Origin: Spirochaetales bacterium
GTDB lineage: Bacteria; Spirochaetota; Spirochaetia; UBA9216
NCBI GenBank assembly: GCA_016839055.1
Contig: JAEKNX010000003.1
Coordinates: 372,001-436,000, forward strand
Reading direction: 5' to 3'
Length of the DNA stretch: 64,000 bases
The notes under the pieces were generated by a model. It saw only the letters and a list, made by a program, of their open reading frames with translations. It had not been told where the DNA came from and did no database searches. Below, in pieces: positions 53,570-64,000 of the stretch. The translations under genes and the position numbers were made by a program. Within the stretch, counting starts at the first letter, position 1; the number at the start of each line of letters is the position of its first letter.

Positions 53570-54487
53570 CTAATTGGATTTTTCTATAACAAGTTCAAGA
53601 TCCTGAGGATGATTCCCGAATTCCCGCCCAAAGATGTTGATCCCCTGATTATGTTTAGCTTCTTCCTTAACTCCAATTCTGACCGAGATAAAAGGATTTC
53701 TATTGAGATTTAGATCCTTGATTGTTATATCTGAACACTTCTCACCATTACAGATAGCCCTTTCCTCGTTTATCCGCCAGTTAACAAGAGAGCCATATTG
53801 AGTTTTGTGAATCCCCCACCAGGGAGGTGTAAGCTTCCCCTTCTTCCCGCCGAAATCACCAGGGGAGCGCCAGAAATCGATCTCCTGATCATTTATCCAG
53901 AGCGAAATATCTGATAAAACCCGGTTGTTAAAATAGGGCACTTCAGAACACAACTCTGCTGAGAACTCAAGAGAGAGGGGCGTCTCATCAAATCCTAAAG
54001 GATTTGGGAAATGGTATTCCAGGTGGCCGGTAGTAAACCAGATCAATTGCGCCTTTGTTCTTTCCGGAAAAAAGAATACTCGAAGATCATTCTTTTTTCC
54101 AATCTGCTCTATAGATGTGCAGATACCGCAGGGAGCTGTTACTTCCGACTGAATAAAGTTGCCTATAGGCATACTTATCCGTTCTACCGATTTTTTTATC
54201 TGTGGTTTTATAGCAATTTGAAGAGATATTTCACTGTACGCCAGGGAGCAGATCTTCTGAGTCCCCCGTATTCCCGGTTTGAAATCAATATGCAGCAGTC
54301 CGGCTTCCTCCAGCTTCTGGACATTGACTGTGGCAGTTGAGATTGGCATACCTAACGAAGAGGCAATCTCATTCAAATTCTTACTTCCAGAACTGAGCAG
54401 CTCGATGATATTCAGTCTCGGCTCTCCTGAGAGGGCCTGAGCGATTTTTTTAATATCTTTTATATCATATATCTTAAGACTTTCCAT
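53570..54487 (-). CDS. ArsR-like regulator with C-terminal effector domain
   Basis: From the ATG at 54487 this is 305 residues. The first 85 form a winged helix of ArsR type: IKKIAQALSGEPRLNIIELL, NLNEIASSLGMPISTATVNV and QKLEEAGLLHIDF. The rest is a strand-rich domain of about 200 residues with several Trp and Pro (YHFPNPLG, DFWRSPGDFGGKKGKLTPPWWG) of a type that occurs with ArsR-like regulators of sugar genes. It is divergent from the GH2 gene and probably controls it. A TTG twelve codons upstream is possible, but the dyad at 54499-54518 would then lie inside the gene. The effector is likely a sugar or glycoside. Confidence 0.8.
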   Translation of the reverse strand: MESLKIYDIKDIKKIAQALSGEPRLNIIELLSSGSKNLNEIASSLGMPISTATVNVQKLEEAGLLHIDFKPGIRGTQKICSLAYSEISLQIAIKPQIKKSVERISMPIGNFIQSEVTAPCGICTSIEQIGKKNDLRVFFFPERTKAQLIWFTTGHLEYHFPNPLGFDETPLSLEFSAELCSEVPYFNNRVLSDISLWINDQEIDFWRSPGDFGGKKGKLTPPWWGIHKTQYGSLVNWRINEERAICNGEKCSDITIKDLNLNRNPFISVRIGVKEEAKHNQGINIFGREFGNHPQDLELVIEKSN

Positions 54488-54498
54488 TTCCGGAGAAT

Positions 54499-54649
54499 AA
54501 CATACATTATTATATGTTTTCAACCTTTAGTTTAATAAATGTTGAATCAAATAGAACTCATATTTGGTCATATTTATAGCATCTGTCCGATAATTTCGGA
54601 TATTTGAGGAAATATTCTTGTTGACAGATTCAAATTTGGACAATAAGAT
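54499..54649 (+). promoter_or_regulatory. GH2 operon promoter and two candidate operators
   Basis: TTGACA (54621-54626) and TAAGAT (54644-54649) are 17 bases apart and put the transcript start near 54656, ahead of the ATG at 54681. Two dyads lie in the divergent region: AACATA..TATGTT (54499-54504 and 54513-54518) next to the regulator start, and TCCGA-TAATT-TCGGA (54586-54600) upstream of the promoter. Both are candidates for the ArsR-type protein. Confidence 0.6.
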
Positions 54650-54680
54650 TCATGTATTATTAAACATTATTGGAGATTTA

Positions 54681-56513
54681 ATGGGAGCTAATATTCAGTC
54701 AAAGACCTGGAAAGCTGTTCCGGGGCATATCATGACCCCCTGGGCGGATTCACTTGATCCTTCCTGTCCATTACCGGAATACCCAAGACCTCAGATGGTT
54801 CGCCGGACGTGGCAGAACCTTAACGGTATTTGGGATTACAGTATCACAAAGAAAAACGGGGCTATGCCGACGAGCTACGGAGAAGAAATTCTTGTACCCT
54901 TTGCAATAGAATCATCCCTCTCAGGGGTGAAAAAAGCCTTGAAGCCGGATGAAGAACTCTGGTACCGTCGTTTCTTCAGGGTTTCTGAGGATTGGGATGG
55001 AAAGCGTCTCCTGCTCCATTTTGAGGCTGTCGACTGGAAGTGTATCTGCTACTTAAACGGCATTAAGCTAGGTGAACACACAGGTGGTTACGTCCCTTTC
55101 AGCTTTGATATTACCGAGCACATGCAACCAGGCGACAATGAGTTGACGGTTTCGGTATGGGACCCGACCGACTCCCATTGGCAGCAGAAGGGGAAGCAGG
55201 TTATAAAGCCTAATACCATATATTATACCTCTACCAGCGGAATCTGGCAGACTGTCTGGCTGGAAGCTGTCGAGAAAGCTAACCATATTCAAAGGATTAA
55301 AATCACTCCAGATACAGATGCCTCAGAGCTGACTGTTGAAGTTGAAACATCCGAAGATGGAGAAGTTCGAGTTTCTGCCATGATAGGAGAAACTGTAATC
55401 GAAGAGGCCTCCGGCTTCTCAGGAAGAAAGGTAAAGTTGAATTTAGCCGAACCAAGACTCTGGACGCCTGATGATCCGTTCCTTTATGACCTTAAAGTTG
55501 AAATACTCTCTGACGGAGAGGTCGTTGATTCTATTGACAGCTATTTCGCCATGCGGAAAATAGAGATGAAAGAGGGCCCCGCCGGGTATCAACGTGTATT
55601 TCTAAACGATGAGCCAATTTTTCTACACGGCCCTCTTGATCAGGGCTACTGGCCTGACGGCGGCATGACAGCTCCCAGCGATGAGGCGCTGCTGTTTGAT
55701 ATTAAGAAAACAAAAGAGCTGGGTTTTAATATGACCCGAAAGCATATTAAAGTTGAGCCGAGACGATGGTACTACCATGCTGACAGGGAAGGGCTTATTG
55801 TAATGCAGGACATGGTGTCTGGCGGTAAAAATGGGGCCAATGAACTTATGACACGTATTACAATATTTTCGAACATAAGCCGGGCAGATGATAATCCCAG
55901 CGCCTATAGAAGAACATGGCGTCAGGATCCTGAATCACGCGTCGACTTTGAAAGAGAACTTATTAAGATTATGGATCACCTTTATAATGTCCCGTCACTC
56001 CTAATCTGGGTCATCTTTAATGAGTCATGGGGTCAGTACGATGCCCTCCGTATTTCAGATACTGCCAGGAATCATGACCCCACAAGACTATTTGATCACG
56101 CCTCCGGCTGGTTTGATCAGGGGGGAGGAGATTTTCGGAGTCTACACACCTATGTTATAAAACTCAAAAAACCAAAAAAACCGGACAAGAGGGTCTATTT
56201 TATATCCGAATATGGGGGATACAACCTCCAGTGCAAGGGCCACCTATGGGATGAAGATAGTGAGTGGGGCTATAGAATATTTAAAAACCGTGCAACTCTG
56301 CAGACAGCCTATGAACAGCTCATCCGTGATCAGCTTATTCCTCTTATTGAAAAAGGTCTCGGACTAGGGGTATATACCCAGTTCTCTGATGTGGAAATAG
56401 AGTCGAACGGATATTTCACCTATGATAGAAAGGTTCTGAAAATTGACGCTGAAGTAGTTAAAGGTTTGAACAAAGAGATCTATGCTGCTTTCAATAAAGC
56501 GGAGAAAAAATGA
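54681..56513 (+). CDS. Glycoside hydrolase family 2 enzyme
   Basis: The ATG at 54681 (TTGGAG in front, promoter upstream) gives 610 residues. The sugar-binding jelly-roll domain is at about 30-215 (RRTWQNLNGIWDY, LWYRRFF, CYLNGIKLGEHTGGYVPFSF). An immunoglobulin-like domain follows to about 320 and a TIM barrel to the end. The acid/base is the Glu in IWVIFNESWGQ (about residue 447) and the nucleophile is in FISEYGGY (about residue 510), both in the GH2 spacing. The enzyme lacks a signal peptide, so it hydrolyses an imported glycoside; galactoside, glucuronide and mannoside are all possible. The transporter gene overlaps it by four bases (ATGA). Confidence 0.9.
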   Translation: MGANIQSKTWKAVPGHIMTPWADSLDPSCPLPEYPRPQMVRRTWQNLNGIWDYSITKKNGAMPTSYGEEILVPFAIESSLSGVKKALKPDEELWYRRFFRVSEDWDGKRLLLHFEAVDWKCICYLNGIKLGEHTGGYVPFSFDITEHMQPGDNELTVSVWDPTDSHWQQKGKQVIKPNTIYYTSTSGIWQTVWLEAVEKANHIQRIKITPDTDASELTVEVETSEDGEVRVSAMIGETVIEEASGFSGRKVKLNLAEPRLWTPDDPFLYDLKVEILSDGEVVDSIDSYFAMRKIEMKEGPAGYQRVFLNDEPIFLHGPLDQGYWPDGGMTAPSDEALLFDIKKTKELGFNMTRKHIKVEPRRWYYHADREGLIVMQDMVSGGKNGANELMTRITIFSNISRADDNPSAYRRTWRQDPESRVDFERELIKIMDHLYNVPSLLIWVIFNESWGQYDALRISDTARNHDPTRLFDHASGWFDQGGGDFRSLHTYVIKLKKPKKPDKRVYFISEYGGYNLQCKGHLWDEDSEWGYRIFKNRATLQTAYEQLIRDQLIPLIEKGLGLGVYTQFSDVEIESNGYFTYDRKVLKIDAEVVKGLNKEIYAAFNKAEKK

Positions 56514-57802
56514 AAAACTTAGAAACGACAAAAATCGGAAAAAAGAACTGGATCGTTCTGGTACTTCTCGGCCTAAGCGGCCAAATAGCCTGGAATGTCG
56601 AGAACTCATGGTTCAACACATTTGTTTTTGATACCATTACTCCTGACCCGAAGCCTATTGCCGTCATGGTAGCGGTAAGCGCGATTGTGGCTACGGTGAC
56701 AACCCTTATTATAGGGACTTTAAGCGATAGAGTCGGAAAGCGTAAACCCTTTATTTTCGTCGGGTACACCCTCTGGGCCCTCTCTACCATTGCTTACCCG
56801 ATGGCAGGATGGACAAGAAACGTTCAGTTAGCTGTTTTTCTTGTTATTGCTTTAGACGCAATGATGACCTTTTTCGGTTCCACAGCTAACGATGCCACCT
56901 TTAACGCCTGGGTCACAGATATCACTGATGAGACAAACAGAGGGACTGTTGAGGGGGTGCTTATGATCCTCCCCGTTCTGGCCATAGTTATGGGTATGGG
57001 GCTTTCGGGAGTTCTGATAGACACTGTCGGATACTTCGCGTTCTTCCTCACTCTCGGAGGGTTTGTACTGATAATGGGCCTTATAGGATCTCTACTTCTA
57101 AAAGAGAGTCCCGGCTTGAGACCCAGAATTGAATCTTCCCAAAAAGGATTTTTTCTCGATCTCATAGATGTTTTCTCACCTAAAAGTATAAAGAAGAACA
57201 AAGAGCTCTACCTCGTATTCCTGACCATGGTACTCTACAACATCTCCATGGAGATAACGGCCCCTTATGGAATGATATATTTGAATAATTATCTTGAAAT
57301 AAGCAAATCCACAGCAGGCCTGCTTTCCACCATTGTAGCTCCAGTACTGATTATATTTGCGCTACCTATCGGAAAGCTCACCGACAAGGGGAAAGGCTTT
57401 ACCGTTATTACTTTCGGATACATAATTGGGTCTTTGGGATCGATCCTTTATTCATTCACTGATTCCCTTGTGTTTCTGGGCGTAACAACCGCGGTCCAGG
57501 CCATTGGTGTGTTGATGAATATAGTCCTTATGGTATGGATCCGAAACCTCATGCCCAAAGACGCAAGAGGTCAATTTCAGGGGGTAAGGATGATATTTAT
57601 GGTTGCCCTCCCTATGGTGATAGGACCGACTATCGGATCATTCCTTATCCAGAATTTCGGAATACCCACCGTGCTAAATGGGCAAGCCGGTTTTATACCT
57701 ACGCCACTTATATATCAAACTGCCGGCATCGTCAGCCTGCTTCCCCTTATCCCTGTCTATTTTCTCAGGAAACAGTGTAAGAAAAGCGGGATTACTATTT
57801 AG
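56510..57802 (+). CDS. MFS sugar/glycoside transporter (GPH-like)
   Basis: This 430-residue protein has twelve membrane helices and the pattern of the GPH/SLC45-like branch of the major facilitator group: GLSGQIAWNVENSWFNTFVF in the first helix, LIIGTLSDRVGKRKPFIFVGY with the loop 2-3 D-R-G-K-R motif, and the second-half counterpart IGKLTDKGKGFT. The branch transports sugars and glycosides with a cation. Its start overlaps the GH2 stop, so the substrate enters by this protein and is cleaved by the GH2 enzyme. It has no further co-directional gene. Confidence 0.9.
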   Translation: MKNLETTKIGKKNWIVLVLLGLSGQIAWNVENSWFNTFVFDTITPDPKPIAVMVAVSAIVATVTTLIIGTLSDRVGKRKPFIFVGYTLWALSTIAYPMAGWTRNVQLAVFLVIALDAMMTFFGSTANDATFNAWVTDITDETNRGTVEGVLMILPVLAIVMGMGLSGVLIDTVGYFAFFLTLGGFVLIMGLIGSLLLKESPGLRPRIESSQKGFFLDLIDVFSPKSIKKNKELYLVFLTMVLYNISMEITAPYGMIYLNNYLEISKSTAGLLSTIVAPVLIIFALPIGKLTDKGKGFTVITFGYIIGSLGSILYSFTDSLVFLGVTTAVQAIGVLMNIVLMVWIRNLMPKDARGQFQGVRMIFMVALPMVIGPTIGSFLIQNFGIPTVLNGQAGFIPTPLIYQTAGIVSLLPLIPVYFLRKQCKKSGITI

Positions 57803-58012
57803 TCTATACTCAGTTTCAGGAGCAGAAGAGCTTTGCTTAACTCAATATTCAAAATGATCTTCCGTTAAAGAAAGAATATCATTTTCACAATGTTACTCCT
57901 GAAAAAGGAAAATGAGATCTATAAGCGACATCTCACTCTTCAAAAAAAAAGCGACAGTTCAGGAAAAGTGATATGTGCCTGAAAGTTAAAAAACCATAGC
58001 ACGGCTTATAGA

Positions 58013-58765
58013 CTAGTCCGATGGAAAAAAACTACACCACTCGGAAATCATAAAATCGAGAAAACTCTTCTGATCTTTCACCCTGCTTTCAAAGGCTGCT
58101 TCTACATCCGTTTCCAGGGTTATCACGGGAATATCGAGAATCTCTGTTACGGATTGATTCAATGTTCCCGGTATTGAATCAATCTGATATACAAAGGGAG
58201 TAAGATTCCCTCTATGACGATTTAAAAAATCTACAGAATCCATCACCGGTTCCAGTGCTTCGGGGTGGCTAAAAATAATGGAATTGCCCAGAGCATAGTT
58301 TTTCATCGGATCGCGTTGTCTGGATTCATGGAGATCCAGAACGATATCCGGTTTTTGATCGGCTATATGGGTGAAGATCTCATAGGCCAGCTCCTGAACC
58401 TCCAATCCTCTCTCTTTCCCTGGGAAGGCGCGATTAAGATCTCCCAGCCAGTAAACGCTCCTTTCACCCGCCTTTACGGCCTCGATATTGGCCCGGGGAA
58501 GCACAATCACCCGGCCTTTCTTTAGGGCATATTCGCTGAAAGCCGAGGCTGCGGCTATTCCGGCGGGTTCGTTCCCGTGAATTCCGCCAACGATATAAAC
58601 GACGGGCCCGGGCTGGCCGCTATCAATGATAAATCCGGTGGTCTCAACATCCAGTCCCTCACAGAGAATGAAGGTTTCCTCACGTCCCTCACTCCCGGCG
58701 CAGCTATAGCATCCGCCGAGAATGCAGAATATAACAATCATGATCAGAAACAATCGCTTCACCAT
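58013..58765 (-). CDS. AstE/aspartoacylase-type lipoprotein amidohydrolase
   Basis: The 250-residue protein begins with a lipoprotein signal (LFLIMIVIFCILGGC, lipobox cysteine near residue 19). The zinc ligands of the M14-like AstE/ASPA family are visible: H and E in VGGIHGNEPAGIA, H in VLDLHESR, and the R-containing DLNRAFPGKE as substrate-binding loop; the catalytic Glu is probably in ITLETDVEA. The family removes acyl groups from N-acyl amino acids or acts as carboxypeptidase. The lipid anchor places it outside the cytoplasm. It is the last gene of the transport cluster, 9 bases after its paralogue. Confidence 0.85.
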   Translation of the reverse strand: MVKRLFLIMIVIFCILGGCYSCAGSEGREETFILCEGLDVETTGFIIDSGQPGPVVYIVGGIHGNEPAGIAAASAFSEYALKKGRVIVLPRANIEAVKAGERSVYWLGDLNRAFPGKERGLEVQELAYEIFTHIADQKPDIVLDLHESRQRDPMKNYALGNSIIFSHPEALEPVMDSVDFLNRHRGNLTPFVYQIDSIPGTLNQSVTEILDIPVITLETDVEAAFESRVKDQKSFLDFMISEWCSFFPSD

Positions 58766-58774
58766 CACCCAATC

Positions 58775-59902
58775 CTACTCGACCGGAAGAAGATAAGCTC
58801 CGACCCCTCTGGACACCATATTCTGGTAAGACGGAATTTCGGAGACAATCATCGCCTTGTTTCCATCATAGGATGACATAGAGATGATGAAGCTTTCAAT
58901 CCCAAAAAGGTGGCGGGCTACCCGGACCTCCAGGGGATGTCCATTCTCATCGTAGGGGACAAACAGGCGCCCAAGATCAGCAGCTTTTTCATACATCGGA
59001 TCCACTCCGGAGAGAACCAGAGCCTCATCTGTGCGACCCCTCAAACGGCCCTGAGATGCGTTAGCGCTTTCCATCAGAACGGCAAACGTTTCTGTCGAAT
59101 CGCCGAGCTCGCGATGCGTCAATCCCCGCAAGTTGACAGGAGAAGGTTCCAGTCCGATATTTACTTCATTCGACTGCATGGTTATAGCTACATCGGCGGC
59201 TATCGGCATTGCCCGCTCATGCGCAACTATTGCATTGATGACGGGATACTCCGGAGAAGCCTCATGAAGGTCTATGCTCAGATCTATTCCCTCGGTGTTT
59301 ATCATGTTACGGATAGCATAGCAGACTTGTTCTGTGAATGTACCATCTGCCCGGCCGGGATAACCGCGATTAAGATTACGTGTTTCACTTCCAGAGAGTT
59401 GCTGACCTGATGCTGCATGTATGTAAACATCGGGATCGGGCCACTGATGAACAGGGTTCGTCGCCCGGGAGCCGAAGCGGAACCAACGCTCTCCAAAGGG
59501 GGTCTCGATGTAAAAACGCTGGGGAGCTCCTTCCTGGGGATCATTATGAGTAAAAGCACTGCGATTCGACCGGGGAATGACGTAAAGGGTTCCCTTTTTA
59601 ACGACTACATTTTCAATTAGTACTACTGAGGCGATATAAGCCGCTGGTTCATTGGGGTGTGTTCCTCCCAGGACAAGCGTAGAACCTCCGGGTTCCCGTC
59701 CCTTCATAATATATACATCGGTGTCACCGTAGCTTCCCTCAAGCCCCGGGAAATAGGTGCTGAGCTTGACGACGCTGCTGACTCCGGGACCTGTAACAAT
59801 GGGCTCCTCCTGATACATGGAAAGGAACATCCTACCTGAGTAGAAAGTGACGATAAGAGCCCCTATCAGTATTATAATTGCAGAAATGTGTTTTCTCTTC
59901 AT
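58775..59902 (-). CDS. AstE/aspartoacylase-type amidohydrolase, membrane-anchored
   Basis: 375 residues with one N-terminal membrane helix (AIIILIGALIVTFYSGRMFL). Metal and substrate motifs are VLGGTHPNEPAAYIA (H..E), NLNRGYPGR and LSIDLHEASPEYP, and the candidate catalytic Glu is in AVLMESANAS. The protein is longer than the paralogue after it and has an inserted segment near residues 120-170 (HQWPDPDVYIHAASG). Two such enzymes next to each other, both outside the cytoplasm, suggest sequential processing of related N-acyl or gamma-linked amino acids. AGGAGGGG precedes the ATG. The 48-residue gene ends 8 bases upstream. Confidence 0.85.
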   Translation of the reverse strand: MKRKHISAIIILIGALIVTFYSGRMFLSMYQEEPIVTGPGVSSVVKLSTYFPGLEGSYGDTDVYIMKGREPGGSTLVLGGTHPNEPAAYIASVVLIENVVVKKGTLYVIPRSNRSAFTHNDPQEGAPQRFYIETPFGERWFRFGSRATNPVHQWPDPDVYIHAASGQQLSGSETRNLNRGYPGRADGTFTEQVCYAIRNMINTEGIDLSIDLHEASPEYPVINAIVAHERAMPIAADVAITMQSNEVNIGLEPSPVNLRGLTHRELGDSTETFAVLMESANASQGRLRGRTDEALVLSGVDPMYEKAADLGRLFVPYDENGHPLEVRVARHLFGIESFIISMSSYDGNKAMIVSEIPSYQNMVSRGVGAYLLPVE

Positions 59903-59910
59903 AACCCCTC

Positions 59911-60057
59911 CTATTTAATCATCAGCAATCGGAGCAGCAGGGGGATTAGAACTATCACTGCATTAGCCTGATCTTTTATTTTTTCTTTGCTTACCAGGTT
60001 TACAACCACAAAGATGCTTACCAGCAGTACTATTAATCGGTATATCCACGTAATCAT
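59911..60057 (-). CDS. 48-residue single-helix membrane protein (proposed small TRAP-like subunit)
   Basis: The frame starts ATG at 60057 with GGGAGG eight bases upstream and reads MITWIYRLIVLLVSIFVVVN, then LVSKEKIKDQANAVIVLIPL and LLRLLMIK. It has one long hydrophobic helix (residues 5-21), a short basic/acidic loop and a second hydrophobic stretch (33-47), so one or two membrane passes. It lies 14 bases after the DctM-like gene and 8 bases before the first AstE-like gene, in frame with a ribosome site, so it is a real gene. In TRAP systems this place is often held by DctQ (about 160-180 residues, four helices), which is otherwise missing here. Confidence 0.75.
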   Translation of the reverse strand: MITWIYRLIVLLVSIFVVVNLVSKEKIKDQANAVIVLIPLLLRLLMIK

Positions 60058-60071
60058 AGCGACCTCCCTTC

Positions 60072-61346
60072 CTAAAACAGGATCCCCGCCAGTTGATTGG
60101 CGAAAATTATAAAGATGATACCCGCCACATTGATGACTATAGCGGGAACTGCGGTCTTTTTAAGAACCTGAACGTAGTTATCCACACCTACAACCTGGGC
60201 GGCAAAGAGTCCCGCCAGAGCAGTCGGCGGCATAAGATCTCCCAGGCTCGCGATTAATGAAAGGGCTCCAGCTGTGATGATCTGATCCTGACTTAATAGA
60301 GCAAGGATGAAGGGAACGCCAAGAACAGATGCGGATCCATACGAGGAAATGGCTCCGAAAAGAGGAATTGTAATCGCTATGCCTATATACAGTAATGCCA
60401 TCGGCAGGCTGATACTGTTTACAACAATCAGCCCCCGCACCCCCGTCAGTGTCATAATCTGGATGAACATGCCTACACCGACAAGAATTCCCAGGACAGG
60501 AAGGGCGTCACTGATGGCCTCCTTGACTTTTTTGAAGATATTGAACCTTTCACCGGTGAAGATTCCAATAAGACTTCCCAGAAGAAATATCAAAGGAAGT
60601 CCCAGGTTTGGTATGTACTGAGGCAGAATTTTGGTTAGCAGCATCAGCGAAAGGACAACAAAAAGAGGAAGGTAAACGAGCAGCCCGTATTTTTTATCCA
60701 GATCGAAGTCCAGGTTTTCCTTCAATTCCGCATAGGAGGTTTTATGGGCATATTTATGCCCCAGAAAAAGAACGGTGAAAATTGCAATAGGTACCGACAT
60801 TAATAGTAGAGGAAGCCCAAAACCGACGTAGGGCATATCAATACCGCTGCCGATGATCATTACCGGAACGTTTACCGGAGGGGCAATCATTCCCATCATC
60901 CCCCCGACAGCAATGATGGCGGCTGTGTTGACAGCGGGAATTCCAAGCATAAGAAAAACAGGAGCCACAAGGCTGCCCGCGGTAAGCACCGCCGCAGTGG
61001 AAGATCCGGTTATCATTCCCGGAAACATCACCACAAGCATGAGGAAAATAAGTAGTATGGCAGGTCTTTTATGAAAACGGTTAATAATTACCGAACTCAA
61101 GGCATGCAAAGCCCCGGATGCTTCTACCACCTTCATAAAGATCATTGCAGTTGCAATAACAAGGATAGTATCGATATAACCGAATGAGCCTTCGATGAGA
61201 TGCCGGACGGAAATACCGTTTCCAGAAACAAGGCTGCCTGAAATGGCAGCAAGTACCATAGCAATTCCTACCGGAAGCTTGAACTTGAAGCAGCCGATCA
61301 TGAATACCGCAACCATAACTAAAAAAATAATTAATTCAAAATACAA
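60072..61346 (-). CDS. DctM-like TRAP transporter large permease
   Basis: 424 residues with about 12 membrane helices. The first is FELIIFLVMVAVFMIGCF, and the family signature is seen in FPGMITGSSTAAVLTAGSLVAPVFLMLGIP and MMGMIAPPVNVPVMIIGSG, with a mirrored second half (ISSYGSASVLGVPFI and ASLGDLMPPTALAGLF). The two TG/SG..A and P-rich hairpins are the substrate and Na+ sites of DctM. The start is TTG, with GGAG seven bases upstream. No DctP binding protein or DctQ is encoded in the cluster. A strong GC hairpin separates it from the DUF6305-like lipoprotein gene. Confidence 0.85.
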   Translation of the reverse strand: MYFELIIFLVMVAVFMIGCFKFKLPVGIAMVLAAISGSLVSGNGISVRHLIEGSFGYIDTILVIATAMIFMKVVEASGALHALSSVIINRFHKRPAILLIFLMLVVMFPGMITGSSTAAVLTAGSLVAPVFLMLGIPAVNTAAIIAVGGMMGMIAPPVNVPVMIIGSGIDMPYVGFGLPLLLMSVPIAIFTVLFLGHKYAHKTSYAELKENLDFDLDKKYGLLVYLPLFVVLSLMLLTKILPQYIPNLGLPLIFLLGSLIGIFTGERFNIFKKVKEAISDALPVLGILVGVGMFIQIMTLTGVRGLIVVNSISLPMALLYIGIAITIPLFGAISSYGSASVLGVPFILALLSQDQIITAGALSLIASLGDLMPPTALAGLFAAQVVGVDNYVQVLKKTAVPAIVINVAGIIFIIFANQLAGILF

Positions 61347-61409
61347 AACATAACTCCATGAAGAAATTTTATAATATAGACATGAGTAGGATAGTCAGAT
61401 AAGTCAACA

Positions 61410-61433
61410 ACGGGGGGGGCTCCCCCCCCCGTA
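61410..61433 (-). terminator. G8/C9 hairpin between lipoprotein and permease genes
   Basis: A CG8 run directly faces a C9G run (61410-61433), so the RNA would fold into a stem of about ten G-C pairs with a two-base loop. It lies in the 101-base gap after the lipoprotein stop. On the minus strand the stem is followed by TTGTTGAC, a weak T-run, so read-through is likely. A partly effective terminator here would make much more lipoprotein than permease, as is usual for binding-protein operons. Confidence 0.6.
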
Positions 61434-61447
61434 AAAAATAAAAACGT

Positions 61448-62068
61448 CTAAGGAAAAGCCTTTTTCAAGGCTCCATATGAATCGACGATGCTGCCGACCC
61501 TGGACATGAAGATATCATTTTCAGCGGCTATGCCGGAAAGCATGCCGTCTTTGTCGCCGCCTTCAACCACAATGAGGTAATCGACGAATTCCACCGAGGC
61601 CTTGATAAACTTATCAGAAAGCTCGCCCCTGCGGCCTTCGCCGCCAATGTGCATTCCAATTATTGTTAAACCCTTAGCTGCAGCCTCTTTGAGGAGTGCG
61701 TCTATCCTGTCAATCTCGTCTTCAGCATCTATACCGGCAGCTCCCAGTCCCTTGGAACTGCCTCCGATGGCAATAACCAATGTTCTGGCCTCGCCCAACC
61801 CGGAAGAATCCAGCACTTCATTGATTTCATATTCCATTCCTCCCTTTTTTAATAAGGATTCAATCATCTTTACATCAGCGCTTTGTCCTGCGGATGTAAG
61901 AATGATGGGAGTTTCGGCAATAGGACCCTCCAAGGCTTTAACTGAGACTTGAACTGATACGGCCGATTCCTGCTGAGAAGTTTTTGAAACAGATTCATCT
62001 CCTCCGCAACCGATTGTAAAAAGGGATGCTGCTGCAATAATAATAATTAATAAACTCAATTTTCGCAT
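61448..62068 (-). CDS. DUF6305-like lipoprotein, candidate binding component
   Basis: 206 residues with a lipoprotein signal (LSLLIIIIAAASLFTIGCGG, lipobox cysteine near residue 21). The mature domain is an alternating alpha/beta fold: ETPIILTSAGQSADVKMIES, LVIAIGGSSKGLGAAGIDAE, LTIIGMHIGGEGRRGEL and DYLIVVEGG. I match this to the family annotated as DUF6305, from memory and at moderate confidence. Its place, directly before a DctM-like permease, and the hairpin after it make it a candidate for the missing extracytoplasmic solute-binding protein, although it is smaller than DctP (about 330 residues). AAGGATA precedes the ATG. Confidence 0.7.
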   Translation of the reverse strand: MRKLSLLIIIIAAASLFTIGCGGDESVSKTSQQESAVSVQVSVKALEGPIAETPIILTSAGQSADVKMIESLLKKGGMEYEINEVLDSSGLGEARTLVIAIGGSSKGLGAAGIDAEDEIDRIDALLKEAAAKGLTIIGMHIGGEGRRGELSDKFIKASVEFVDYLIVVEGGDKDGMLSGIAAENDIFMSRVGSIVDSYGALKKAFP

Positions 62069-62085
62069 CTATAAATATCCTTCAG

Positions 62086-63822
62086 TTATTTTACACCTAC
62101 GGCCTGACCATCACGACGAGGATCTCCAACACCGACGATCACACCTGTTTCATCTATTAAAATTGAATTGACGGATCCAAGGGAGGGATAGTAGCTGTCT
62201 TTGACGGAAACTTCGTGACCAAGAGCCTGTAGTGCTTTCACGGTATCATCTGAAATACGGCCTTCGATGGTGATCCCCGCACCAAGCTTCGAAACAAGCC
62301 GGAGCGCGTCTACTGCATCGATAATGGACATGTCGTAGTCAACTACGTTACTTATAACCTGTGCCACTGCCACGATGATGTTTGAGCCGCCGGGAGAACC
62401 GATGACCATGAAGGGGGATCCATCTTTAAGAACAAGAGAAGGACTCATACTGCTTAACGGTCGCTTTCCGGCTTCAATACCGTTGACGGAACCGGGCGTT
62501 AAGTCAAAATCCATCATATGATTATTCATGATTATTCCCGTGCCGGGAACAGTGACACCGGACCCAAAAAAGAAATTAATGGATTTTGTCAGAGAAACGA
62601 CATTACCGTCTCCGTCCATAACGGACAGATGGGTTGTGCTGCTACTTTCATAGGGCCACACATCAGGTTGATCCAATTCGGTGAGTACTGACTCCATAGA
62701 AATCTTATCAGCTAGAATTTTTGCATATTCTTCCGAAACAAGACCGCTAAGCGGAACATCTACAAAAGCAGTATCGGCCATGTATTTCGATCTGTCGGCA
62801 TAAACAAATTTCATAGCCTCAGCCCAAAGATGAACTGCTTCAGTTGAGCCATGCTCATATGAACCGAGGTCGAAATTCTCCAGGATATTCAGCAGCTGCA
62901 CTATATGAGTACCGCCGGAACTGGCAGGAGGAATCGAAACAATTTCGTATCCACGATATTCTCCAACTATCGGTTCTCTGATTTCAACTTTGTAGCCGGC
63001 AAGATCTTCCAGGGAAAGGACCCCTCCAAGGGCCTGTACGTTTTCAACAATCGCTTCCGCGATTGGCCCTTCATAGATAGCTTTAGCTCCCTCTTTCGCA
63101 ATAGCTTTCAGGGTTTTAACCAGATCCGGGTTATAAATTACATCTCCAACCTGATATGGCATACCGTCTTCATTAAGCCACAGGTCCGCAGAACCTTCGT
63201 TCAGAGAGAGAATACGATACATATCCGCGATTATACCGGCAAGATTGCCGGTTACTTCAATACCATTGGCTTCAAGTTCCTCATAAACAGGAGTCACCAC
63301 CTCCTCCATGGTCATGGTTCCATATTTTTCAAGAGCGGTTTCAAGCCCAAGAACCTCGCCGGGCACACCGATGGCCTGAGGCGAGAAGGCTGCACCGTAG
63401 AAATCGAAGGATTTGTCTTCCTTAAAAAACCTGTAAAACATTTCGTTGGATGCGTTGGCGGGAGAAGTTTCCCGGAAATCCACAACAACAACCCTGTCCT
63501 CTTCTGCGAGATAGATGGTCATAAATCCGCCGCCACCTATACCGGAGGCGTTGGGTTCGAAGACGCCAACAGCAAATGCTGTAGCGACAGCGGCATCAAT
63601 GGCATTACCACCCTTTTCTAAAATTGCCGCTCCGATTTGAGAGGCTACAGGCTTACCGGAAACAACCATGCCCTTTCTTGCCACATCGGCTCTGGCTATA
63701 GCGGGGTTATCGGGATTTACTGAAAAAGTCTGAACATCTGGAAGGGCCTCCGATTGTCCGCCGGCCCAAACAGCCGTGGATAAAACAACCAATATCAACA
63801 GACATAACATCAGTTTTTTCAT
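62086..63822 (-). CDS. ggt: Gamma-glutamyltranspeptidase
   Basis: 578 residues with a signal peptide (KLMLCLLILVVLSTAVWA, then GGQSE). The enzyme cleaves gamma-glutamyl amide bonds of glutathione or poly-gamma-glutamate. Family blocks are GGNAIDAAVATAFAVGVFEP, SGIGGGGFMTI, DFRETSP, and, at the small-subunit start, SSSTTHLSVMDGDGN, where the first Thr of TTHLSV is the autocleavage and catalytic residue (about 391). The GSPGG oxyanion block is near residue 480. The exported form would act outside the cytoplasm. It is the first gene of the cluster, 17 bases before the DUF6305-like gene. AAAGGAGAG precedes the ATG. Confidence 0.93.
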   Translation of the reverse strand: MKKLMLCLLILVVLSTAVWAGGQSEALPDVQTFSVNPDNPAIARADVARKGMVVSGKPVASQIGAAILEKGGNAIDAAVATAFAVGVFEPNASGIGGGGFMTIYLAEEDRVVVVDFRETSPANASNEMFYRFFKEDKSFDFYGAAFSPQAIGVPGEVLGLETALEKYGTMTMEEVVTPVYEELEANGIEVTGNLAGIIADMYRILSLNEGSADLWLNEDGMPYQVGDVIYNPDLVKTLKAIAKEGAKAIYEGPIAEAIVENVQALGGVLSLEDLAGYKVEIREPIVGEYRGYEIVSIPPASSGGTHIVQLLNILENFDLGSYEHGSTEAVHLWAEAMKFVYADRSKYMADTAFVDVPLSGLVSEEYAKILADKISMESVLTELDQPDVWPYESSSTTHLSVMDGDGNVVSLTKSINFFFGSGVTVPGTGIIMNNHMMDFDLTPGSVNGIEAGKRPLSSMSPSLVLKDGSPFMVIGSPGGSNIIVAVAQVISNVVDYDMSIIDAVDALRLVSKLGAGITIEGRISDDTVKALQALGHEVSVKDSYYPSLGSVNSILIDETGVIVGVGDPRRDGQAVGVK

Positions 63823-63886: not shown

Positions 63887-64000
63887 CAGGATTATTCTCA
63901 TTTTTCTCTCAAATTTATTATATTAAAATAGCCTTAGAATTTACTTCTTCCATCGAAAAAACTGTTTCGGCCTGCCGACTTTCCCGTAAGAATATTCAGA

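What the first reader, a model, noticed from the sequence alone, without database searches (positions are those of the whole stretch)
57900..63822. A TRAP-like transport cluster without DctP or DctQ, linked to GGT and two AstE-type hydrolases
Seen: one-direction order ggt, DUF6305-like lipoprotein, GC hairpin, DctM-like permease, 48-residue membrane protein, two extracytoplasmic AstE/ASPA-type enzymes, with short gaps. Known: TRAP systems need a binding protein (DctP or TAXI) and a small permease (DctQ); gamma-glutamyltranspeptidase frees glutamate from gamma-linked substrates. Inferred: the DUF6305 protein replaces DctP and the 48-residue protein replaces DctQ, giving a new minimal TRAP-like importer fed by the three hydrolases.
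Basis: partly seen in the sequence, partly recalled or inferred. Interest (0 to 1): 0.75.

Follow-up and report, generated by a model that had tools for sequence, protein, structure and literature searches.

The report
Polyglutamate turnover cassette with TRAP-like permease
The genes are the second half of a poly-gamma-glutamate locus that is conserved across several bacterial phyla: beside the genes that make the polymer sit enzymes that probably cut it and a stand-alone membrane permease, with a new 48-residue partner protein, that probably takes the pieces back up.

Summary
In detail: six co-directional genes on the minus strand (ggt, DUF6305, DctM-like permease, 48-aa membrane protein, two AstE-type enzymes), with no DctP or DctQ. 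The key context lies just outside the window: the next genes on the same strand are a response regulator, a histidine kinase, TIGR04332, pgsC and pgsB, that is, a poly-gamma-glutamate (PGA) synthase locus. The cassette is not local. In the best 80 of 338 relatives of the permease (Bacillota, Fusobacteriota, Spirochaetota, Calditrichota, KSB1, Aminicenantes, Synergistaceae), p48 and AstE1 accompany it in 79, DUF6305 in 71, GGT in 69. DUF6305 and pgsC co-occur in 15 of 15 genomes of the window's class. Every DctP and DctQ in the host genome belongs to another DctM. The GGT, and 69 of 69 measurable cassette GGTs, lack the lid loop, as in Bacillus GGTs that degrade PGA. The permease has the ion-transporter/TRAP-M fold; DUF6305 is a single Rossmann-like domain, not a DctP. 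Best reading: the turnover and recapture arm of a PGA system. The PGA link is near certain; import of glutamate or short gamma-glutamyl pieces is inferred. Direction, substrate and p48's role are untested.

The parts
62086..63822 (-). ggt: secreted gamma-glutamyltranspeptidase without the lid loop; the only GGT found in the genome
   Evidence: PF01019 541 bits, TIGR00066 553 bits over its 357.85 cut-off; 10-residue gap at the lid loop against E. coli 2e0w, none against B. licheniformis 4y23; single copy
61448..62068 (-). DUF6305 extracytoplasmic protein, lipoprotein-like N-terminus
   Evidence: PF19823 165 bits; AlphaFold model pLDDT 87.8, Rossmann-like; conserved T58, G61, Q62, K106, E118, R146, D174, most of them on loops at the C-ends of the strands; single copy in genome
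61410..61432 (-). G9/C8 hairpin between DUF6305 and the permease gene (about these coordinates)
   Evidence: position homologous to structured gaps in 30 of 43 other loci, but other gaps of the operon are structured too
60072..61346 (-). DctM-like permease, ion-transporter superfamily fold, no DctP/DctQ partner
   Evidence: PF06808 40.5 bits against 267-423 bits for the four ordinary DctM of the genome; model pLDDT 88.8, Foldseek best TRAP M subunits, VIA-align best ArsB/NaS1/SiaM; split from TRAP DctM with support 0.998
59911..60057 (-). p48: conserved 47-48 residue two-helix membrane protein ending LRxLxIK; no named family
   Evidence: no family over cut-off; 93 homologues aligned, p48 present in 79 of 80 loci, normally between permease and AstE1; 57-58 residue forms in divergent spirochaete loci
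58775..59902 (-). AstE1: membrane-anchored, extracytoplasmic AstE/AspA-type zinc hydrolase
   Evidence: profile hits AstE/AspA structures 2qj8, 3cdx, 6twl; invariant H82, E85, N178, R179, H213, E278; N-terminal hydrophobic segment
58013..58768 (-). AstE2: second AstE/AspA-type hydrolase, lipoprotein-like N-terminus
   Evidence: AstE_AspA_cat 73.3 bits, Peptidase_M99 36.8 bits; AstE2 homologues in 40 of 80 loci, often directly before pgsB
63941..64000 (-). last 60 bases of the cassette's response regulator gene (continues to C8:436561), followed upstream outside the window by histidine kinase, TIGR04332, pgsC, pgsB
   Evidence: genome region L042; families; RR homologues in 33 and HK homologues in 31 of 80 loci

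Best explanation
The six genes are the turnover and recapture arm of a poly-gamma-glutamate (PGA) locus. PgsB, PgsC and the TIGR04332 protein, encoded directly upstream on the same strand, make and deliver gamma-glutamate polymer outside the inner membrane. GGT without a lid loop releases glutamate from the amino end of chains. The AstE-type zinc enzymes cut the amide bond between a gamma-glutamyl group and the next glutamate; this is the same kind of bond as in N-succinylglutamate, the substrate of AstE. DUF6305 binds the products, or chain ends, on the outer face of the membrane. The DctM-like permease, held with p48 and the membrane-anchored AstE1 in one complex, carries glutamate or short gamma-glutamyl pieces into the cell in the manner of ion-transporter-superfamily symporters. 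The two-component system presumably sets the balance of synthesis and recovery. Shown here by sequence comparison: the gene set, its conservation, its tie to PGA synthase genes, the predicted folds, the intact active-site motifs and the missing lid loop. Inferred: direction of transport, substrate, complex formation, and the jobs of DUF6305 and p48.
For: PGA link: pgsC 3 kb beyond the window on the same contig and strand, with pgsB (209.9 bits, a little under the equivalog cut-off of 222.7), pgsC (97.9 over 96.45) and TIGR04332 (257.9 over 100) in line with the cassette. Among 393 genomes of the phylum, all 15 with strong DUF6305 have pgsC and no other genome of the class does, apart from one spurious hit; Fisher p 3e-21 without correction for kinship, but within three genera some members have both and others neither. 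46 of 80 loci have pgsC within the fetched flank, and 19 of 21 genomes whose locus lacked it have it elsewhere. One functional unit: p48 and AstE1 accompany the permease in 79 of 80 loci with median gaps of 13 and 12 nt, and the permease-p48-AstE1 triple is sometimes duplicated whole. Hydrolysis: 69 of 69 measurable cassette GGTs lack the lid loop, the form tied to hydrolysis of polymeric PGA in Bacillus (PMC8062742); the known PGA hydrolase PghP is a zinc enzyme related to carboxypeptidase A (PMC4497714), the same broad fold class as AstE (own knowledge); in divergent loci of one spirochaete family C69-type dipeptidases stand where GGT is missing. Transport: predicted ion-transporter fold shared with TRAP M, DASS and ArsB proteins. 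Binding role of DUF6305: lipobox in most Bacillota but plain signal peptides in most two-membrane phyla, as for solute-binding proteins.
Against: No experiment on any protein of this cassette was found. Transporters of this superfamily include exporters (ArsB and MtrF appear among the fold matches), so direction is open. DUF6305's fold has no specific match, so binding is a guess from conserved residues. The cassette's tie to synthase genes would fit a role in assembly or export equally well. Two of 21 genomes with the cassette showed no pgsC (one is a 1.7-Mb metagenome bin).
Confidence: 0.55

Rival explanations
1. The cassette is part of the assembly and export machine: permease, p48, AstE1 and DUF6305 help deliver, trim or release the polymer, and GGT attaches it to the surface as CapD does in Bacillus.
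For: Strict co-occurrence with synthase genes; PgsA- and PgsE-type genes are missing from this locus; p48 recalls PgsE/CapE in being a tiny membrane protein of a PGA locus (own knowledge of size, no sequence match tested); CapD is a GGT relative.
Against: The GGT is much closer to ordinary GGT (407 bits) than to CapD (152 bits for its large chain). Ion-transporter-fold permeases carry small anions, not polymers (own knowledge). Eight pgsB-pgsC-TIGR04332 genomes of other classes of the phylum do without DUF6305, and B. subtilis has PgsC but no DUF6305.
Confidence: 0.25
2. One reading: a general importer of scavenged glutamate or gamma-glutamyl peptides (glutathione and the like) that happens to lie beside PGA genes.
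For: GGT and AstE-type enzymes act on many gamma-glutamyl and N-acyl amino acids; the transport fold fits.
Against: The cassette is almost never found in a genome without pgsC, and all cassette GGTs measured lack the lid loop, unlike the lid-positive GGTs of Gram-negative glutathione degraders (PMC8062742).
Confidence: 0.1
3. The permease exports or exchanges a small ion or amino acid needed on the outer face for synthesis, or serves with DUF6305 and the two-component system as a sensor of outside glutamate.
For: A two-component system is a frequent member of the cassette (31-33 of 80 loci); some permeases of this fold are exporters.
Against: Does not account for two or three dedicated hydrolases; no sensor-like domain was found in the permease or DUF6305.
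Confidence: 0.08

Closest known systems
TRAP transporters (DctPQM / SiaPQM)
   Same: Permease has the M-subunit fold and passes the Pfam DctM cut-off; an extracytoplasmic protein is encoded next to it.
   Different: No DctP, no DctQ here or as spare genes in the genome; DUF6305 is a small single-domain protein; a 48-residue two-helix protein and an anchored zinc hydrolase are the constant neighbours.
Bacillus pgsBCA-E / capBCADE poly-gamma-glutamate loci with PgdS, GGT or CapD
   Same: PgsB and PgsC synthase genes, a PGA-type GGT, further hydrolases.
   Different: TIGR04332 stands in place of PgsA; permease, DUF6305, p48, AstE1 and the two-component system are additional; DUF6305 is absent from B. 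subtilis (control genomes).
Three-gene PGA locus of Gram-negative bacteria (Fusobacterium nucleatum, Candela et al. 2009, cited in PMC3815933 and PMC4497714)
   Same: As I recall that paper, pgsB-pgsC plus a third gene of its own family, probably TIGR04332; two Fusobacterium loci found here have this core.
   Different: The same Fusobacterium loci (L096, L110) carry GGT, DUF6305, permease, p48 and AstE1 directly upstream; I found no paper that describes them as part of the system.
AstE / aspartoacylase and PghP-type gamma-PGA hydrolases
   Same: Zinc-ligand and catalytic residues of AstE/AspA retained; the same type of amide bond would be cut.
   Different: Extracytoplasmic and, for AstE1, membrane-anchored; AstE1 scores just under the Pfam family cut-off; the Pfam gamma-PGA hydrolase family was not among the matches.

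Membership tests
TRAP transporter | DctM-type large permease | tested here: met
   PF06808 40.5 bits over cut-off 23.8, but far below 267-423 bits of the genome's other DctM; fold matches TRAP M and also DASS/ArsB
TRAP transporter | DctQ small permease subunit | tested here: not met
   three DctQ in genome, each beside another DctM; DctQ in 1 of 80 homologous loci, in a separate TRAP locus (the DctQ profile used there was built from one sequence, so sensitivity is low, but no recurrent unassigned neighbour other than the RR and HK was found either)
TRAP transporter | DctP or TAXI solute-binding protein | tested here: not met
   three DctP in genome, each beside another DctM; DUF6305 has no Pfam match to DctP. 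TAXI was not searched genome-wide
TRAP transporter | binding protein with two-lobed fold | tested here: inconclusive
   DUF6305 model is one Rossmann-like domain of about 155 residues; a distant relation cannot be excluded by these searches
Poly-gamma-glutamate locus | PgsB ligase | tested here: inconclusive
   TIGR04012 209.9 bits, E 5e-62, slightly under equivalog cut-off 222.7
Poly-gamma-glutamate locus | PgsC membrane subunit | tested here: met
   TIGR04011 97.9 bits over 96.45; PF14102 108 bits
Poly-gamma-glutamate locus | third subunit (PgsA, or TIGR04332 in its place) | tested here: met
   TIGR04332 257.9 bits over 100; the only PgsA-type protein (PF09587) lies on another contig
Poly-gamma-glutamate locus | product is gamma-linked polyglutamate | not testable with these tools
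   needs chemistry
PGA-degrading GGT | GGT catalytic fold with autoprocessing Thr | tested here: met
   TIGR00066 553 bits; small subunit begins at residue 396 by alignment to solved small chains
PGA-degrading GGT | no lid loop | tested here: met
   10-residue gap against E. coli GGT, none against B. licheniformis GGT; 69 of 69 cassette GGTs short
AstE/AspA zinc hydrolase | H..E...H zinc ligands and Asn-Arg substrate motif | tested here: met
   invariant H82, E85, N178, R179, H213, E278 in the AstE1 alignment that includes AstE2; assignment of roles from own knowledge of the family

The most novel reading that the evidence does not exclude
The permease, the 48-residue p48 and the membrane-anchored zinc hydrolase AstE1 form one obligate membrane complex, a hydrolase-coupled transporter that, with DUF6305 as receptor, clips gamma-glutamate polymer and imports the pieces: a new transporter class that uses the TRAP-M fold without DctP or DctQ and is dedicated to a self-made polymer.
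Probability: 0.35. Interest if true: 0.8.

Novelty: new variant of a known kind. Interest (0 to 1): 0.62.

Why it matters
PGA is known mostly from Bacillus capsules and fermented food; outside the Bacilli its machinery is hardly studied. This work defines a recurring gene set (pgsB-pgsC-TIGR04332, two-component system, lid-less GGT, DUF6305, permease, p48, AstE1/AstE2) in many anaerobes, gut Oscillospiraceae and Lachnospiraceae among them. It gives DUF6305 and an unnamed 48-residue protein family a pathway, suggests that these bacteria both build and recover the polymer, and offers a TRAP-M-type permease that apparently works without the two partners held to be needed.

Tried and rejected
DctP/DctQ partners elsewhere in the genome: rejected, all are paired with other DctM. 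Local oddity of one strain: rejected. p48 as a chance ORF: rejected, 93 homologues of constant length and ending. GGT as CapD: not supported. Fold search for DUF6305: only weak or generic Rossmann-like matches (SGNH esterases by Foldseek with TM about 0.3; sugar kinases and others by VIA-align at Z 8-10), nothing specific. Profile search of the permease against PDB sequences: no hit. Viral contigs: no relative of the permease. Hairpin between DUF6305 and permease as a special feature: real, but other gaps in these operons are structured as well. Literature: no paper on DUF6305, and none linking PGA loci with a TRAP-like permease. The first rooting of the permease tree was unreliable; only the split between four TRAP DctM and the cassette sequences was used.
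Full report
WHAT IS THERE. The window's minus strand carries six co-directional genes with short gaps: ggt (63822-62086), a DUF6305 protein with a lipoprotein-like N-terminus (62068-61448), a DctM-like permease (61346-60072, TTG start), a 48-residue hydrophobic protein, here p48 (60057-59911), and two AstE/AspA-type enzymes (59902-58775 and 58768-58013). Pfam and NCBIfam confirm GGT and DUF6305 strongly, DctM weakly (40.5 bits), AstE2 clearly and AstE1 at the edge. Structures of the AstE/AspA family are the best profile matches of AstE1. The hairpin between DUF6305 and the permease is real.

THE PART THAT LIES OUTSIDE THE WINDOW. The window is G000:C8:372001-436000. Searching the genome for PgsC found it at C8:438999-439385 on the same strand. 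Reading the contig gives, on the minus strand: pgsB, pgsC, TIGR04332, a histidine kinase, a response regulator, then ggt, DUF6305, permease, p48, AstE1, AstE2. NCBIfam scores: PgsB 209.9 bits (cut-off 222.7), PgsC 97.9 (96.45), TIGR04332 257.9 (100); the kinase and regulator are confirmed by Pfam. The host is most likely a spirochaete: two of its class-mates in the search coincide in contig size or coordinates with named Spirochaetes records (G380 with L132, G372 with L113).

CONSERVATION. Among 393 genomes of the phylum, strong DUF6305 matches occur in 15, always with PgsC; within the class PgsC occurs in no other genome except one spurious fragment. Fisher's exact test gives p 3e-21; kinship inflates this, but in three genera (g1, g4, g31) some members have both genes and others neither. 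Eight genomes of other classes of the phylum (plus one with a split gene) have PgsC without DUF6305, and those looked at have pgsB-pgsC-TIGR04332, so the cassette is an addition to the synthase core. In 14 of the 15 DUF6305 loci of other genomes that were read in full, a permease stands next to DUF6305, and where there is a permease there is a p48 homologue after it. A scan of 84,980 species genomes with the permease alignment gave 338 relatives; in the best 80 loci p48 and AstE1 are present in 79 each, DUF6305 in 71, GGT in 69, AstE2 in 40, PgsC in 46, the response regulator in 33 and the kinase in 31. By record title these are about 48 Bacillota, 12 Spirochaetota, 5 Fusobacteriota, 5 Aminicenantes, 3 Calditrichota, 2 KSB1, 1 Synergistaceae and 4 unnamed. 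Of 21 genomes whose locus had no PgsC within the fetched flank, 19 have it elsewhere. Median gaps are 13 nt (permease-p48) and 12 nt (p48-AstE1). In L109, L114, L125, L149 and L150 (and, among the spirochaetes, L034) a second, divergent permease-p48-AstE1 triple stands in the same locus, which suggests that the three work together.

NO DctP, NO DctQ. The genome has three DctP and three DctQ; each lies beside one of three ordinary DctM genes on contigs C20, C33 and C35, and the fourth ordinary DctM (C43) lies in a 632-residue open frame. In the 80 loci DctP and DctQ appear once, in a separate TRAP locus about 6 kb away in L082. Clustering of all unassigned neighbours found only the two-component genes in more than six loci. 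The cassette permeases are split from four ordinary TRAP DctM with support 0.998 and a long branch.

STRUCTURES. The permease model (pLDDT 88.8) has the ion-transporter-superfamily fold; Foldseek ranks TRAP M subunits (IseQM, SiaQM) among the best, VIA-align ranks ArsB (Z 28.6, rmsd 3.9 over 404 residues), NaS1 (28.2), NaDC3 (25.9) and SiaM (25.1) highest. So 'TRAP-like' is right for the fold but does not single out TRAP. DUF6305 (pLDDT 87.8) is one Rossmann-like alpha/beta domain with no specific match. Its conserved residues (T58, G61, Q62, K106, E118, R146, D174) lie mostly on loops at the C-terminal ends of the strands, the usual place of a ligand or active site in this fold. Lipoboxes are found in most Bacillota copies and plain signal peptides in most copies from two-membrane phyla, the habit of solute-binding proteins. 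Three loci (L081, L093, L099) have proteins with more than twice the usual DUF6305 score, which would fit repeated domains that bind a repetitive polymer.

ENZYMES. The GGT is nearer to ordinary GGT than to CapD. It lacks the lid loop that covers the active site of E. coli GGT and matches the length of the lid-less B. licheniformis enzyme; 69 of 69 measurable cassette GGTs are lid-less. A review classes Bacillus GGTs as PGA degraders, links the missing lid loop to hydrolysis of polymeric PGA, and reports that inserting a lid loop made B. subtilis GGT prefer glutamine to bulky PGA (PMC8062742). AstE cleaves N-succinylglutamate (own knowledge); a gamma-glutamyl-glutamate bond is of the same kind, an N-acyl-glutamate amide. 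The phage PGA hydrolase PghP is a zinc enzyme related to carboxypeptidase A (PMC4497714). In divergent loci of one spirochaete family C69-type dipeptidases stand where GGT is missing.

EXPLANATION. The best reading is a PGA locus with a built-in recovery arm: synthesis by PgsB/PgsC/TIGR04332, cutting by GGT and AstE1/AstE2, capture by DUF6305, uptake of glutamate or short oligomers by permease plus p48. That the cassette belongs to PGA systems I hold near 0.95; that its job is turnover and uptake about 0.55. A role in assembly, trimming or export is the main rival. The tie between hydrolases and permease, the lid-less GGT and the small-anion fold favour turnover; the strict tie to the synthase is neutral.

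NOVELTY. PGA loci, TRAP permeases, GGT and AstE enzymes are known. A PGA locus in a Gram-negative bacterium was described for Fusobacterium nucleatum (Candela et al. 2009, known to me from memory and through citations in PMC3815933 and PMC4497714). I found no paper on DUF6305 or on the permease-p48-AstE1 cassette; the library held is open-access only. I rate it a new variant of a known kind, with an unnamed small-protein family and a partnerless DctM-type permease as its new parts.

Noticed in passing
L109, L114, L125, L149, L150, L034: Second copies of the permease-p48-AstE1 triple, strongly diverged from the first copy, next to each other in one locus.
   Followed up: partly
L081:380-2236, L093:8244-9938, L099:4230-5996: Proteins of about 560-620 residues with more than twice the usual DUF6305 score, probably several DUF6305 domains in a row.
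   Followed up: no
L030 (G372:C12:20679-40600): A DUF6305 gene with two AstE-type genes and a GGT but no permease and no p48, in a genome that has a second DUF6305 locus with permease.
   Followed up: no
L036, L037, L039, L040: Divergent spirochaete loci in which C69-type dipeptidase genes stand where GGT stands elsewhere, most of them beside pgsB-pgsC-TIGR04332.
   Followed up: partly
L042:6942-8955 (window from 63941 outward): A histidine kinase and response regulator pair that recurs in about 30 of 80 loci and is probably the regulator of these PGA systems.
   Followed up: partly
window 53570-57802: Next to the cassette: a helix-turn-helix regulator, a glycoside hydrolase family 2 enzyme and a major-facilitator transporter, likely an unrelated sugar-use cluster.
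   Followed up: no
G000:C15:15470-16216: The genome's only PgsA/CapA-type protein (PF09587) lies on another contig, away from pgsB-pgsC.
   Followed up: no
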